Counted from the stretch's first letter, positions 29,982 to 36,747 are shown. The stretch is DNA of 40,278 nt from Candidatus Saccharimonadota bacterium (GCA_017479205.1 JAFVCN010000036.1:1-40278); one strand, 5' to 3'. Program-made: numbers and translations. Notes: generated from the letters alone by a model not told the origin.

Positions 29982-30053
29982 AATAACTGCTCCGAGATAG
30001 AAGATAAAAACATATTTCCAATAAAGTTTATACGAAAGACCTGTTCACGAGAG

Positions 30054-30119
30054 ATTAAAACATAATCATTTTGACAAAAAAACAAAAATATTTTATGAAT
30101 GTGATATAATAATGATATG
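30054..30119 (+). repeat. direct repeat copy 1, carrying a promoter
   Basis: This stretch repeats at 31850-31912 with about 80% identity: ATTAAAACATAA, TTTGACAAAAAA, AAAAATATT and TGATATAATAATG all recur in order. It ends in the extended -10 TGA-TATAAT (TATAAT at 30105-30110) placed 6 nt before the ATG at 30117. The two copies flank the 289-aa/129-aa gene pair. Confidence 0.8.
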
Positions 30120-30986
30120 GGAAAGGTCATTGAGAAAAAAGTAGTATTGTACCATTTGACACTGGAATCTGATATTTTTGATAATTTTTCTGATGTTCTT
30201 GAAAGGATATCGCAAGAGAACGAAACCGACAGAAGAATCGTAATCAAACCTGATAATTTTATCGTAAAAGTATCACAGAAGGATAACGAACGTTTTTTAA
30301 TTACTATTCAACGCCTTACGGATGAAGATTTACCAAAAATGGCAGATGGAGATAACGGAGAGAACGAAGAAGAACTATCAATTCCAGACGGTAAAAAACT
30401 TTCGTATAAAAATGTTTTTATTTACGATAAGAATGATAGTATGTTGGCTATGGCTAAGTTACAGGGGCATCCACAAAATGGCAAATTTACAAAATGTATT
30501 ACAGAGCTAGTTAAGCATTATGCTGAACCTAATAACAAATTTAATATACATTTAGCACAAATAACCGACAATGATCTTAGAGAGAAAATAAAAAATGCAA
30601 AGAATATTACCATGGCACAGTTTACATCCGTAGACTTTTGCGATTCAAGCAATATCAATGAAAAAGATTACGAAAAATATAAGGGGTATCTTTCCGGGCA
30701 AGGCTACAGAAAAACGACTAAAATCTCTGGAATAGGTAAGTCGGATATTAAAAAGATTATAGAGGGTGTTATAGAAGATTTTATGAGCAATAATGAATTA
30801 GTTAATTCTTTAAATATTACCATGGAGATTGATGGAGAGAAAATAAACTTCAATCGTTATTTCAAGCAATACAAAATACTAGTGTCAGAAGATATTAACA
30901 ATGGAAGATATGTGGATTATGATGACCTCGAGAACAAAATCACAGACGTTTTAAATGAATTCATAGAAAACAAAAATGGAGGATAA
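30117..30986 (+). CDS. uncharacterised 289-aa cytoplasmic protein, candidate defence component
   Basis: A hydrophilic acidic protein without signal or TM. It starts with a strand-rich region (KKVVLYHLTLESDIFD), then an acidic loop (GDNGENEEELSIPDG), strands (YKNVFIYDKNDSMLAM) and a Lys-rich helical middle. The C-terminal part reads KKIIEGVIEDFMSNNELV and VDYDDLENKITDVLNEF. I recognise no catalytic motif and no family. The mRNA is predicted to be leaderless. It is followed at once by a small membrane protein whose ribosome-binding site lies in this gene's end, so the two are a coupled pair. The pattern of soluble partner plus membrane partner resembles abortive-infection pairs, but that is only an analogy. 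Confidence 0.75.
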   Translation: MGKVIEKKVVLYHLTLESDIFDNFSDVLERISQENETDRRIVIKPDNFIVKVSQKDNERFLITIQRLTDEDLPKMADGDNGENEEELSIPDGKKLSYKNVFIYDKNDSMLAMAKLQGHPQNGKFTKCITELVKHYAEPNNKFNIHLAQITDNDLREKIKNAKNITMAQFTSVDFCDSSNINEKDYEKYKGYLSGQGYRKTTKISGIGKSDIKKIIEGVIEDFMSNNELVNSLNITMEIDGEKINFNRYFKQYKILVSEDINNGRYVDYDDLENKITDVLNEFIENKNGG

Positions 30987-30987
30987 T

Positions 30988-31377
30988 ATGACAGATAGTA
31001 AAAAAGTAATCATCTATGAGATAATAATAACAGTAATTATATTGGCAACAAAGATTTTTGTTCAGGGAATATTTGACGCGGTATTTTTTGATAACGTAGA
31101 AGTAAATAACGCCATATGTAATAATATTTTCAATCTAAACTCCGCTTTAGTAGTTGCACTATTACTATCGTTAATATCGAATAAGGTTTTTATAGAGGGC
31201 AAAAGGCATTTCAGAAAGATAGCTCGAAGTACTACGTACTTGATTATTTTGAATTCCATAATAATGTCGATATCATGTGCTTTTGGCGAGAATGAAATTA
31301 TATTTATGTCAGTAGCATTCGGTGGAAATATTTACAAATTTTACGATATCGCAAAACACATGCTAGATATTTTTTAA
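30988..31377 (+). CDS. uncharacterised 129-aa membrane protein, partner of the 289-aa protein
   Basis: The start at 30988 is chosen because GGAGG (30978-30982) lies ideally before it; an ATG at 30976 would leave no binding site. It has three or four TM segments (about residues 9-30, 48-66, 79-99 and a weak one at 106-125), with a basic loop EGKRHFRKIARS in the middle, and ends near DIAKHMLDIF. No known motif. The TGA of the preceding gene is at 30984-30986, so spacing is one base and the genes are coupled. Confidence 0.72.
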   Translation: MTDSKKVIIYEIIITVIILATKIFVQGIFDAVFFDNVEVNNAICNNIFNLNSALVVALLLSLISNKVFIEGKRHFRKIARSTTYLIILNSIIMSISCAFGENEIIFMSVAFGGNIYKFYDIAKHMLDIF

Positions 31378-31462
31378 TTGATATATTATTGGTCTATTTG
31401 GCAAAAGTTATGACCTTAATCCTCGAGTAGTATAATAAGTGTAAAGGTAGATTGAATATATC

Positions 31463-31573
31463 ATGGTAAAGACAGCACAACTTAGAAATAGTAATTTTTC
31501 AGATAAACTAGACATTGATTCGGTTCTATCAAAGATAGATAATGATAACATCGATTGCTTCTGCGGTAATTAA
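31463..31573 (+). CDS. 36-codon ORF, likely truncated gene start
   Basis: A TATAAT (31430-31435) lies upstream, and this ATG opens 36 codons (MVKTAQLRNSNFSDKLD..., then DNDNIDCFCGN) ending in TAA at 31573. It overlaps the start of the flippase relic in another frame. It reads like the 5' end of some gene fused at about 31535 to unrelated sequence, thus a rearrangement scar. No family recognised. Confidence 0.3.
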   Translation: MVKTAQLRNSNFSDKLDIDSVLSKIDNDNIDCFCGN

Positions 31574-31880
31574 CATTGTCATAGATCTTGTTTTGATTAA
31601 CTTTATAGGACTTTATGCAGCTGTGCTTTCGACTGCATTAGCATATCTGATTATGGTGATATATAGACATTTTGATTTAAAGAGATATATAAATATAACG
31701 TATAAATTCTTCGATATTGCTTTAATGTTAGCGGGATTTATTATTATATGTACTTTATATTTCTTGAATACTTTTGGATTAAATATAATTTGTATGCTGC
31801 TGGCGGTGGCGTATGGGTTGATTCAGAATCGTAAAATAATAAGTAGCATATTAAAACATAAGAAGTTTGACAAAAAATAA
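31535..31880 (+). pseudogene. C-terminal relic of a second Wzx-type flippase
   Basis: About 113 codons (first ATG 31542) with three or four TM segments. They correspond to the last quarter of MOP-superfamily flippases: INIVIDLVLINFIGLYAAVLST, then a loop RHFDLKRYIN and a final Lys-rich tail. No N-terminal three quarters exist upstream, and a TAG sits immediately before. It is unlike the C-terminus of the intact flippase ending at 29981, so it stems from a different, lost polysaccharide locus. Its last ~30 bases belong to direct repeat copy 2. Confidence 0.75.
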
Positions 31881-31912
31881 AAATATTATATATATGATAT
31901 AATAATGGTATG
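31850..31912 (+). repeat. direct repeat copy 2, carrying the KAP NTPase promoter
   Basis: The second copy of the repeat seen at 30054-30119. It includes the end of the flippase relic and the extended -10 TGA-TATAAT (TATAAT at 31898-31903), 6 nt before the ATG at 31910. Confidence 0.8.
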
Positions 31913-33592
31913 AAATATGTACATCCTTGGAGATTATTAGGTAGTTTCGTAATCAAGACTATTTTATCTTGTATAGCTGTTTTTCCTGCTGTTATCTTCT
32001 TCGCTGACGGATTGCGGGGGCCATTACGAAATCTCATCACATCAATTGCCCCGGATTTCTTAGAGTGGTATTTGGTTGATATGCGGACTTATTGGGTGGC
32101 GTTTATCATAGTGGCTGTTATTATTGAAATCTACTTTATCAGCATTATTCGTGAGGACACCTTCCCAGAGAAAGATTACGGTAGTGCACAGAGATTGCTT
32201 GCGGTTTTAAAATCGGATAATCCGAAATCTGCGCTAGTTAGCAAAAAAGATATGATCGAGAAGAATGGAGGGAAAGACCTCGCTAGTACTATGACTAGCA
32301 GGGTAGAAGAGATTGTTGACGAAAATATACAGCCAATTGTAAGTTTTTTATCGACTAGTGCTAGTGATAAAACTCTAGTACTTAACTCGTCTTGGGGAAC
32401 TGGAAAAACATCTAGTATACTTATTGCGGTTGACGAATTTACCAAGAAAAATGAGAAACGCAAAAAGGTAGTAGATGTAAGGTATATCTATGAATCAGTT
32501 TTCAAATACAATGGGAACTTGGAAGAATTCACGGAAGATATTATTATGTCGATATCGAAGCTCTTGAGAATTTACGGCATAGCCCCACAAAAAGAAATAG
32601 AAAAATTAATTAAAAATATAAAGTCTAGTAACAATATAAGCCTTCTGAAGAACATTTTATATAATAATTATTCCAATATATCATTAACCTCAGAAGTTAT
32701 AAATAAAATAAATCAAAAATATATTGATAATAAACGTGATTTTATAATTGTTGTAATTATTGATGATTTAGATAGATTAAGCGGAAAAGACATGGCTGAG
32801 GTACTATCCATTTTATCAATCTTGAGGCGGTTCATATTTGTAAAAATAATAGCCCCTATTGATCCTAACGCCGTGATTAAACAGCTAGGAGCAGAAAAAT
32901 ATTATAAGCCAGAAACATTTATCAATAAATATCTACCAGAAGCTTCATCGGTTAAGATAAAATCTGGGTATGATATTGCTGAAGCTATAGCTTTAGAAAG
33001 AATGAAAGGTATGAGCGGCAATAAGAAAATGTCACTAGAACAATTTAAACCTGCATGGGCAGCAATAATTTTCAGGTTAATTACCAATAAATTAGCATAT
33101 GAAGTCGATCAGCAAGAGTACAAAAGGTTTAGATGGTTAAACGGCCGTAATACTCTCCCAGCTACGCAGCCAGATTGGATTAAGGACGGTACGATTTTAA
33201 AGGCCGCATTAATTAATGCGCCTAACTACGTTAAGAAGTTTTGTACGGACTTTAATAACGGGTCAAAAGCAAAGTACAGCTGGGGCAACTCTGGGTATAG
33301 TGACATAAAATATTTTAATTTAATCTTCTCTGGTATGATAGATAATAGAACTGGTGATCGCGTCATGGCATCTTTTTCCGACGAAAAATGGAATGATGTT
33401 ATCGAGCCTTGGATTTATACTTTTGCAGAAAAACATTGGAGTGTCTTTGGATTTACGGTGCGTGATGTTATTGAAATTATAGCGGGAATAGAAGACATCC
33501 AACTAAATGTGAATGCGCCTGGCTTACAATTTGCGCAAGTTTACAATAGTCTATTTCCTGATAACCAAATTAAGATGAAAGACAAGAATTAA
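31910..33592 (+). CDS. membrane-anchored KAP-family P-loop NTPase
   Basis: A 560-aa protein with two N-terminal TM segments (about residues 9-31 and 60-80) and a cytoplasmic STAND-like P-loop NTPase. Walker A is NSSWGTGKTSS (159-169), and Walker B with its extension is VVIIDDLDRLSGKD (281-294), the DDLDR signature typical of the KAP group (Kidins220/PifA). The C-terminal 200 residues are helical and include many Trp. KAP proteins include PifA of the F plasmid, which excludes phage T7, and eukaryotic membrane receptors; the two-TM anchor plus NTPase fits that type. Its promoter is a copy of the one in front of the 289-aa gene, so the two may be co-regulated. A role in phage defence is plausible but not shown. 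Confidence 0.85.
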   Translation: MKYVHPWRLLGSFVIKTILSCIAVFPAVIFFADGLRGPLRNLITSIAPDFLEWYLVDMRTYWVAFIIVAVIIEIYFISIIREDTFPEKDYGSAQRLLAVLKSDNPKSALVSKKDMIEKNGGKDLASTMTSRVEEIVDENIQPIVSFLSTSASDKTLVLNSSWGTGKTSSILIAVDEFTKKNEKRKKVVDVRYIYESVFKYNGNLEEFTEDIIMSISKLLRIYGIAPQKEIEKLIKNIKSSNNISLLKNILYNNYSNISLTSEVINKINQKYIDNKRDFIIVVIIDDLDRLSGKDMAEVLSILSILRRFIFVKIIAPIDPNAVIKQLGAEKYYKPETFINKYLPEASSVKIKSGYDIAEAIALERMKGMSGNKKMSLEQFKPAWAAIIFRLITNKLAYEVDQQEYKRFRWLNGRNTLPATQPDWIKDGTILKAALINAPNYVKKFCTDFNNGSKAKYSWGNSGYSDIKYFNLIFSGMIDNRTGDRVMASFSDEKWNDVIEPWIYTFAEKHWSVFGFTVRDVIEIIAGIEDIQLNVNAPGLQFAQVYNSLFPDNQIKMKDKN

Positions 33593-33699: not shown

Positions 33700-34281
33700 A
33701 TGGTTATAAAAACGAAAATTATCGCTATTGCGCTTGCTGGCGTAGGCATACTTGGCACTGGGGCGGTTGCGACGATACAGAATGGCAGAACTGTCGTTAA
33801 CAGCCCAAGCTATCATAGAGAAGGCGAGAAAGGAACTGACCTTACTGAAGTTAAGCAGCCAGTCGTCGAAACAAAAACCGAAACTAAAGAGGTTGAAATT
33901 CCGTTTTCGACAACAACAATTCAGGACAGTTCAAAAGCGAAAGGTACCTCCTATGTAAAAACTGAAGGTCAAAACGGGACTAAAACCGAGATCTATGAAG
34001 TTACTTATACTGATGGGGAGGTAACTGACAGAAGGCTTGTATCTTCGGAAGTTACAAAAGAACCAGTTAATAAAGTCGTTGCAGAGGGAACATATGTTAA
34101 ACCAGCTACAAATAACTGCCCGAACGGAACGTATAAAAATTCTGCTGGAAATACTGTTTGTCGTCCGGCGCAGACTAACACTGGTGGTGCAACCGCTCAA
34201 TGCCGAGACGGTTCTTATAGCTACAGCCAATCTCGTCGTGGAACTTGCTCGCATCATGGTGGGGTTGCGAGGTGGTTGTAA
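33700..34281 (+). CDS. secreted protein with G5-like and DUF3761-like domains
   Basis: A 193-aa protein with an N-terminal hydrophobic signal/anchor (residues 6-25). A G5-like segment ends VTKEPVNKVVAEGT, the characteristic close of G5 domains, which often bind cell-wall sugars. A Cys-rich C-terminus follows, with CRDGSYSYSQSRRGTCSHHGGVARWL-like spacing as in DUF3761 (two Cys, His-His-Gly-Gly-Val, final Trp-Leu). It is probably displayed at the cell surface. Last gene before the non-coding/tRNA stretch; no terminator is visible close to the stop. Confidence 0.85.
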   Translation: MVIKTKIIAIALAGVGILGTGAVATIQNGRTVVNSPSYHREGEKGTDLTEVKQPVVETKTETKEVEIPFSTTTIQDSSKAKGTSYVKTEGQNGTKTEIYEVTYTDGEVTDRRLVSSEVTKEPVNKVVAEGTYVKPATNNCPNGTYKNSAGNTVCRPAQTNTGGATAQCRDGSYSYSQSRRGTCSHHGGVARWL

Positions 34282-34738: not shown

Positions 34739-35230
34739 ATGAAAATAAACCTAAAAAGGTTGTCTTATGCTTTTCTAGCAGCTTTATTGTTCGCTGGTTC
34801 GGCGCAAATTTTATTAACAAATAAATCTTATGCGGAAGATAATGTTCCAGAAGCCTCGCTAAATGAAAATGTAGTAAAACCTGAATCTACGGAACCGACA
34901 ATCGATACTAACACCGAGGTTAAAAGCCTAGAAAAAACTTCAGTAAAAAGTCTAAAATCAACAAACACAAATGAGACTTGTGAGACTGTTGATGTAGATG
35001 GCACCTGCTATGAAACAATTAACGAAGCTCTAGCGGCTATTGATGCGTCTTCCGAGCTTACTAATACCCTTACTCTCCATGCTGATATTGAAGATAGTGA
35101 AGCAATCTATCAGTTTAAAGCTAATAGCACTACTATTGTTGACTTTAACGGCTATAACTGGACTACTGTCGTGTTTTCTATGTCTGGGGCGCTAAAGTTG
35201 AGCTCATTGGGCAGGGAACTCTTAATTTAA
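34739..35230 (+). pseudogene. 5' part of a frameshifted surface protein gene
   Basis: 163 codons with a clear signal peptide (about residues 1-32, cleavage near SYAED), a Thr/Glu/Lys-rich linker with a CETVDVDGTC pair, and a beginning beta-helix-like region (NTLTLHADIEDSE, TIVDFNGYNWTTVVFSM). After that the frame runs into unlike sequence and a TAA. The expected continuation lies one frame off (see the 3' part). Restoring one T in the four-T run at 35174-35177 would join both parts into one protein of about 670 aa. Confidence 0.85.
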
Positions 35231-36747
35231 GCGCACAGATTCCGTTTGCGCTTCTTGGTTGGAATTCTGAGCTCGATTCTAGAGATTGGACACATCTAAC
35301 AGTTGGCGATAATGTAACCCTTAAATCCACAGATAATGAGCGTACTTATTTAATCACTATGAGTACTACAGATTATAAGGATTATAAATATAGTATTACC
35401 GTAGATATGAACGGAACACTTGATGGTATAAGAAGCAATACGTCTACGGGAATTTTTGTCAACGGACTCTTCAAAGAAGGAAATCCAATCTTCAATATTA
35501 ACGGTATGATTAAAGCGGACTGGGGAATTAGCGTTTCCGGAACTGCAATGGTCAACTTTAATGGCGACATCCGAGCTATGAAGGAAGGTATTGAAATGCG
35601 CGCCGGCGAACTTAATGTTGGTAGCGGCGCTGAGATCTATGTCAGCTCCGATACGGAATACAAGGTCATCCCTAACGGCTCTGGTACGACTACCGAAGGT
35701 GCGGCTATCGCTATCGCACAACACACTACAAAACTCCCGATTGAAGTTAATATTATTGACGGCGAATTTTATGCGAATGTTCCGTTTAGTGAAGCAAACC
35801 CACAAGGAAACGATGCAGAATCTCTATCAAAAGTCTCAATTACCATTTCCGGTGGCGAATTTATTAGCTATGCTGACGAAACAGTCGTATCTGAAGATTT
35901 TACGAAATTCATTAGTGGTGGTGTCTATACTGCCGCTCCGGACGAGACTTATGCTATGGACGGATATAGCGTTTATTCAATCGGTACTCATTATATCGTT
36001 ATCCCGACAACCGAAACTGATGCGGATGACGAAATCTCTGACGACACCGGTAATAAAGAGATTCTAAACAATATTGCCGAACAGGCGGTTGCTGAATTAA
36101 TCGCAAACTTCGAAACGGTTGAAGACGGCGACGTAATTACTTTAAGCGACGGCACGGTAATCGAAGTAGTAAATGTTAATGCGCTAGCTAATGCTCTAGC
36201 AGATGGGCAAAAAATTACCGCTCAGCTTAACTCTTTCGATGTCTCGGAAGCCGTTTCTGAAGAGGAAAAAGAGCTTCTCTATAGCAAAGCTTATGAGGGT
36301 TCAAATTATTACGGAATCTACGATTTCTCGGTTTATCTTAAAAACGAAGAAGGTTACTATATCGCTCAAATAGTTGAATTAGGTAGCCCGCTAAAACTTA
36401 CCTTCGACTTATCCGATGTTCCGGCTCTTGAAGAAAATCATCTTCGCGAATATCAGGTTATAAGAAGCCATAATGGCGAAGCTGCTGAACTAGACTATGA
36501 AATCTCAGGCACAACTATGACCTTTGAATCAGATAAGTTCTCAAACTACCTTATCTCTTACCTTGATACCGAAGAAGAAAAATATATTCCGCTCGTTCCG
36601 GATACTGGCGGATTTACAAAAATCGATCCGGTCGCGACCGGAACAACCGCCCTTACCCAGATTACTATTCTCTCGGCAGTAGCTTTCTTCGCTGCTCACT
36701 TCGCCCGAATTTCATATACCCGCTACGCAAGAAAAAATAATAAGTAG
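35158..36747 (+). pseudogene. 3' part of the frameshifted surface protein, with a C-terminal VPDTG sorting-like signal
   Basis: The frame is open from 35158 without any start codon until the ATG at 35359, and the stretch before that ATG reads as protein (VWGAKVELIGQGTLNL..., WTHLTVGDNVTLKST). From that ATG on there are 462 codons: Ser/Thr/Gly-rich beta-helix repeats, then acidic and Tyr-rich regions. The C-terminus has PLVPDTGGF, a hydrophobic segment (about 26 residues) and RYARKNNK, as in sortase-type cell-wall sorting signals, with VPDTG where LPxTG would be. Terminator directly after. Whether the two parts yield one product depends on the frameshift. Confidence 0.85.

What the first reader, a model, noticed from the sequence alone, without database searches (positions are those of the whole stretch)
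30054..33592. Gene pair between direct-repeat promoters, next to a KAP NTPase: candidate undescribed (defence) system
A 289-aa soluble protein and a 129-aa membrane protein are coupled (RBS inside the end of the first) and lie between two ~65-bp imperfect direct repeats (30054-30119, 31850-31912). Each repeat ends in the same TGATATAAT-N6-ATG promoter; the second drives a two-TM KAP-family NTPase. The island lies between a capsule operon and tRNA-Ser, a typical place for mobile accessory genes. I do not recognise the first two families. KAP proteins are linked to phage exclusion through PifA, but the function here is inference.
Basis: partly seen in the sequence, partly recalled or inferred. 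Interest (0 to 1): 0.85.

Follow-up and report, generated by a model that had tools for sequence, protein, structure and literature searches.

The report
Distant RexAB-type phage-exclusion gene pair
The two unrecognised genes look like a very distant cousin of RexA/RexB, the pair with which phage lambda stops other phages, here sitting in the chromosome of a reduced-genome bacterium at a spot where relatives carry other defence-like genes.

Summary
A 289-aa soluble gene (S) and a 129-aa membrane gene (M) are coupled in one operon. They lie between two ~65-bp direct repeats, each ending in TGATATAAT-N6-ATG, and a KAP NTPase follows the second. Of 174 genomes of the genus, S and M occur in the same four, always as a coupled pair; none of the other three has the KAP gene, so KAP is a separate unit. 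No curated family matches S or M. Profile comparison links S to DUF6731 (probability 96.5, E 9e-10; all shuffles far lower) and DUF6731 to lambda RexA (probability 90.3). A predicted DUF6731 structure has lambda RexA (8TWQ) as its best PDB match (E 1.7e-8, Z 14.4) and RdgC next, as RexA does. Every readable DUF6731 locus examined is followed by a small 3-4-TM gene, as rexA is by rexB. I read the pair as a divergent RexAB-type system: a DNA-binding trigger plus a membrane effector. The repeats are a resident capsule-operon promoter; the closest relative has the same promoter before a different, toxin-like cassette. Homology of M to RexB could not be shown. Function is inferred.

The parts
30023..30055 (+). 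last codons of a lost ugd (UDP-glucose 6-dehydrogenase) gene, YTKDLFTRD*
   Evidence: translation and match to the ends of ugd genes in L099, L102, L035, L013
30054..30119 (+). repeat copy 1: intergenic promoter with extended -10 TGATATAAT, N6, ATG
   Evidence: the same sequence follows ugd in the closest relative G560 (L099 11300-11396, 79% over 99 nt)
30117..30986 (+). S: 289-aa soluble protein, remote DUF6731/RexA-superfamily protein (RexA-like)
   Evidence: hhalign against 14 DUF6731 proteins: probability 96.5, E 9e-10, 246 columns; shuffles at most 22 against score 72
30979..30983 (+). ribosome-binding site of M (GGAGG) inside the end of S
   Evidence: sequence
30988..31377 (+). M: 129-aa membrane protein, TM segments 7-25, 53-71, 82-100 and a weakly hydrophobic C-terminus; putative RexB-like effector
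   Evidence: homology to RexB not demonstrable
31464..31880 (+). decayed remnants: a short truncated ORF, then the C-terminal part of a flippase-like protein
31850..31912 (+). repeat copy 2: same promoter, now before the KAP gene
31910..33592 (+). KAP-family P-loop NTPase with two N-terminal TM segments; neighbour, not part of the pair
   Evidence: Pfam KAP_NTPase E 5.8e-10; PADLOC PifA E 4.7e-8; not with the pair elsewhere
33700..34281 (+). G5/DUF3761 protein marking the conserved far side of the accessory site
   Evidence: present near the pair in G482 (L013 7963-8541) and as a 3' remnant in G560

Best explanation
S and M form a RexAB-type exclusion (abortive-infection) module. S is a RexA-superfamily protein, expected to dimerise and bind DNA non-specifically, that senses invading phage DNA or replication complexes. 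It then switches on M, a small polytopic membrane protein, which damages or permeabilises the membrane and arrests growth before the phage can multiply. The module is one cassette in a chromosomal accessory site behind a capsule operon; a resident promoter there drives whichever cassette is present. The KAP NTPase is an independent neighbouring cassette, probably also defence-related. Shown here: the gene pair and its conservation, the S to DUF6731 and DUF6731 to RexA relationships, and the different cassette at the same site in a relative. Inferred: sensing, DNA binding, the S to M trigger, membrane damage, and phage defence itself.
For: S and M are found in exactly the same 4 of 174 genomes of the genus, always in the same order and coupled. 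S matches DUF6731 at probability 96.5, E 9e-10 over 246 columns; reversed and shuffled controls are far lower. DUF6731 matches the lambda RexA family at probability 90.3, E 1.5e-6; S plus DUF6731 against RexA gives 92.5, E 4.8e-7. A predicted DUF6731 structure (pLDDT 76.6) has lambda RexA 8TWQ as top PDB hit, E 1.7e-8, Z 14.4 over 243 residues, then RdgC, the structural relative published for RexA (PMC11077077). All distinct readable DUF6731 loci (15) are followed within 26 nt by a 3-4-TM gene. In Pseudomonas phage AUS531phi the pair follows a cI-type gene, as in lambda. The DUF6731 membrane partners fall in phrog_17119, which lambda RexB also touches (E 0.034). RexABpp works this way in P. 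putida (PMC12894663). Neighbours of the pair elsewhere: MzaB-like ATPase (E 1.2e-27) and an integrase.
Against: S has no hit to curated RexA models (Pfam, PADLOC, PHROGs), and the direct S against RexA profile comparison is not significant (P 0.13). M shows no demonstrable homology to RexB or to the DUF6731 partners; a reversed control scored higher. The AlphaFold model of S itself was unusable (pLDDT 35.5), so the fold of S is inferred from DUF6731. No prophage or cI gene adjoins the pair in the window. No functional data exist.
Confidence: 0.6

Rival explanations
1. Reversed roles, as described for mycobacteriophage Butters gp30/gp31: S is itself the cytosolic antiviral effector and M holds it at the membrane until infection.
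For: This arrangement is known for one RexA-like/RexB-like pair (PMC12894663 discussion); same two-gene plan.
Against: The other described systems have RexB as effector (same source); nothing in the sequence decides.
Confidence: 0.15
2. A stand-alone toxin-antitoxin or addiction pair (membrane toxin M restrained by S) that maintains the island, not aimed at phage.
For: Small membrane protein coupled to a soluble partner; the same site in the closest relative holds an M78-like/PIN-like pair and a zeta toxin.
Against: The RexA-superfamily relationship of S; gene order with the large soluble gene first, as in rexAB.
Confidence: 0.12
3. One three-gene system S-M-KAP, with KAP as an ATP-driven switch.
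For: Adjacency and shared promoter sequence.
Against: None of the three other pair carriers has a KAP homologue match and neither of the two strong KAP carriers has the pair; decayed capsule-type sequence lies between them.
Confidence: 0.06
4. Surface or capsule-related accessory genes co-regulated with the capsule operon, with no role in immunity.
For: The pair follows a polysaccharide cluster here and in G482.
Against: In G600 and G667 the pair lies beside an MzaB-like ATPase or near an integrase, not capsule genes; S is intracellular and RexA-related.
Confidence: 0.07

Closest known systems
Phage lambda RexA-RexB exclusion system (and RexABpp of Pseudomonas putida prophage P1; actinophages Sbash, CarolAnn)
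   Same: Two-gene module, ~280-aa soluble protein first, small polytopic membrane protein second; S belongs to the RexA superfamily by transitive profile evidence; M is similar in size to RexB (129 against 144 aa) with the first TM segments at similar positions.
   Different: No direct sequence similarity to RexA or RexB; chromosomal accessory site in a reduced genome, no cI repressor or prophage alongside; fourth TM of M uncertain.
DUF6731 (PF20505, phrog_10865, unknown function) with its 3-4-TM partner (phrog_17119)
   Same: S aligns to DUF6731 over 246 columns (probability 96.5); same gene order, partner directly downstream.
   Different: S scores below any DUF6731 model threshold; about 16-20% identity; M is shorter than the partners (129 against 161-198 aa) and not alignable with significance.
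KAP-family NTPases / PifA
   Same: The neighbouring gene is a KAP NTPase with two N-terminal TM segments and a weak PifA match.
   Different: Belongs to a separate cassette; not linked to the pair in other genomes.
Kiwa (KwaA 4-TM, KwaB soluble)
   Same: Small TM protein plus ~300-aa soluble protein (from memory).
   Different: No PADLOC match of S or M to any model at E 10; membrane gene is second here.

Membership tests
RexAB-type exclusion system | soluble RexA-superfamily protein (RdgC-like two-domain fold) | tested here: inconclusive
   S to DUF6731 probability 96.5; DUF6731 to RexA probability 90.3 and top structure match 8TWQ; direct S to RexA not significant; S model too poor
RexAB-type exclusion system | rexA directly followed by rexB in one operon, both conserved together | tested here: met
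   the same four genomes of 174 carry S and M, adjacent and coupled
RexAB-type exclusion system | RexB: small polytopic (4-TM) membrane protein homologous to RexB | tested here: inconclusive
   M has 3 clear TM segments and a hydrophobic tail; profile comparison not significant
RexAB-type exclusion system | location by a cI-type repressor in a prophage (usual, not required) | tested here: not met
   no repressor, integrase or phage genes seen in the island; not treated as defining, since rex genes of some actinophages lie away from the repressor (PMC11077077)
RexAB-type exclusion system | DNA binding by RexA, membrane damage by RexB, phage exclusion | not testable with these tools
   needs bench work
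DUF6731 (PF20505) | score above the curated Pfam cut-off | tested here: not met
   no hit of S or its relatives at E 10; no hit in the own genome; S is therefore called a remote relative, not a member
KAP NTPase (31910-33592 only) | KAP P-loop domain above the Pfam cut-off, TM segments | tested here: met
   39.3 bits against cut-off 20; TM 13-31, 62-80
Kiwa | KwaA/KwaB family match | tested here: inconclusive
   no PADLOC hit of S or M at E 10; no profile comparison with KwaA/KwaB alignments was made

The most novel reading that the evidence does not exclude
A deeply divergent RexAB branch, carried by a reduced-genome, epibiont-type bacterium as a chromosomal defence cassette outside prophages, and, together with it, DUF6731 plus its membrane partner as a large unrecognised RexAB family of phages of Bacillota and Pseudomonas.
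Probability: 0.55. Interest if true: 0.72.

Novelty: new variant of a known kind. Interest (0 to 1): 0.62.

Why it matters
Only five RexAB-like systems had been described by January 2026 (PMC12894663), 70 years after the rII exclusion phenotype. Linking DUF6731 to RexA (Pfam and PHROGs list it as unknown function, and no paper in the library names it) and finding a remote branch in a CPR-type genome would turn Rex exclusion from a lambda curiosity into a widespread, testable class. It would also name a defence cassette in bacteria that rarely carry CRISPR-Cas.

Tried and rejected
Direct homologue searches for S found nothing in plasmids, phages, viral contigs or genome contigs, nor in phylum, order or family samples outside the genus apart from weak hits of about 40-95 residues judged as noise. 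No Pfam, PADLOC, NCBIfam, PHROGs or PDB sequence match for S. The first DUF6731 member was found with a consensus that I wrote from memory as a search probe; all later tests use sequences from the records. The AlphaFold model of S with 10 viral DUF6731 rows failed (pLDDT 35.5) and was not used. M against RexB or the DUF6731 partners: not significant, reversed control higher, so no homology is claimed. The idea that the repeats are transposon ends was dropped: no transposase or integrase is near, and the same promoter follows ugd in G560 with other cargo. A profile search of the PDB sequences with DUF6731 found nothing; only the structure comparison did.

Full report
Observation. S is 30117-30986 (289 aa, no TM). 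M starts at 30988 (129 aa) with GGAGG inside the end of S. The two repeats, 30054-30119 and 31850-31912, are 85% identical with blastn E 1.3e-13 in the whole-genome search; apart from the homologous site in G560, the best other hits in 170 genomes were near 1e-5. Both end in TGATATAAT-N6-ATG, which predicts leaderless starts. The gene after the second repeat is a KAP NTPase.

Distribution. Searching all 174 genomes of the genus, S was found in this genome, G482, G600 and G667, and M in exactly the same four (G734 gave only a 54-position hit to S at E 0.006). In each, S is followed by M with the ends overlapping or nearly touching. S identities to the window's copy are 29-37%. Outside the genus, samples of the family, order and phylum gave no convincing hit. 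The KAP homologue occurs in two other genomes at strong scores (G620, G687), neither with the pair. So the pair is a unit and KAP is another. The KAP homologues lie beside a GIY-YIG/SLFN-g3 helicase gene (G620) and a SocA_Panacea gene (G687), so KAP looks defence-related in its own right.

What S is. No curated family matches S. I compared the four S proteins as a profile. Against DUF6731 (14 proteins from phages, viral contigs and one plasmid) the score is 72, probability 96.5, E 9e-10, 246 columns; 60 column shuffles reached at most 22 and the reversed profile 16 (the first comparison with 7 proteins is). DUF6731 against four RexA proteins of lambda and relatives gives probability 90.3, E 1.5e-6, shuffles at most 23. 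S and DUF6731 together against RexA give 92.5, E 4.8e-7. S alone against RexA is not significant (P 0.13). These E-values are for single pairwise comparisons, which is why the shuffles matter. A DUF6731 model (pLDDT 76.6, pTM 0.71) has lambda RexA 8TWQ as its best PDB match: Foldseek E 1.7e-8, VIA-align Z 14.4 over 243 residues. The high rmsd (15.5) would fit a different angle between two domains. RdgC follows, the relative published for RexA (PMC11077077). The conclusion is a chain: S is a remote DUF6731 relative, and DUF6731 is in the RexA superfamily. The model of S itself failed.

The partner. All distinct DUF6731 loci with a readable frame carry, from overlapping to 26 nt downstream, a gene for a 3-4-TM protein of 161-198 aa (L065 gave no readable frame and was set aside; L058 and L064 duplicate L049 and L048; L062 and L068 are near-identical). 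In Pseudomonas phage AUS531phi they follow a cI-type gene, as rexAB do in lambda. The partners tested belong to phrog_17119, which lambda RexB touches at E 0.034. M resembles them in size class and first TM positions, but no profile test is significant, so M as a RexB homologue remains an inference from gene order and topology.

The site. In the closest relative seen for this locus, G560 (88.7% DNA identity downstream of the tRNA), the same ugd 3' end and the same 99-nt promoter stretch (79%) are followed by another two-gene cassette (398 aa with a weak M78 match and 152 aa with a weak PIN match), a 3' remnant of the G5 gene, a zeta toxin gene, a transporter and then tRNA-Ser. The window keeps the last codons of ugd before repeat 1 and a flippase-like remnant before repeat 2. 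The simplest reading is that a resident promoter behind the capsule operon is the seam at which cassettes are exchanged, and that two such seams now lie in tandem. In G482 the pair also lies between a polysaccharide cluster and the G5 gene. In G600 the pair is beside an MzaB-like ATPase (PADLOC E 1.2e-27), in G667 beside an AAA_14/DUF4143 ATPase and near an integrase.

Mechanism. By analogy with lambda and with RexABpp of P. putida, where RexA binds DNA and its excess makes RexB stop growth and permeabilise the membrane (PMC12894663), S would be the DNA-binding trigger and M the membrane effector. None of these steps has been shown for this pair.

Novelty. RexAB is known; a branch this remote, outside phages in a reduced genome, was not found in the library searched, and DUF6731 is named in none of its papers. 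I rate it a new variant of a known kind.

Noticed in passing
window 34739-35230 and 35359-36747: Two ORFs of a secreted-type protein correspond to two parts of one intact 667-aa gene in G560 (L099 4762-6765): the window's copy is split, either a decayed gene or an assembly error.
   Followed up: partly
L099 8804-11302: At the equivalent site in G560: a 398-aa M78-like plus 152-aa PIN-like gene pair behind the same promoter sequence as S, and a zeta toxin gene.
   Followed up: partly
L033 8944-15158: KAP NTPase homologue in G620 beside a GIY-YIG/SLFN-g3 helicase protein with weak Nhi and AbiO matches: a candidate defence island in this genus.
   Followed up: partly
L034 1-2466: KAP NTPase homologue in G687 beside a SocA_Panacea-domain protein and an unknown 225-aa partner.
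   Followed up: no
L047-L053, L059-L063, L066-L068: DUF6731 plus a small 3-4-TM protein is a recurrent gene pair in temperate-type phages, several times beside the terminase genes, and on one plasmid beside a type I restriction system; likely an unrecognised RexAB family.
   Followed up: partly
L014 13994-15052: MzaB-like GHKL ATPase beside the pair in G600, running to the end of the stretch read.
   Followed up: partly
window 31464-31565: Short truncated ORF (MVKTAQLRNSNFSDKLDIDSVLSKIDNDN...) with a TATAAT box upstream, apparently the start of a lost cassette.
   Followed up: no
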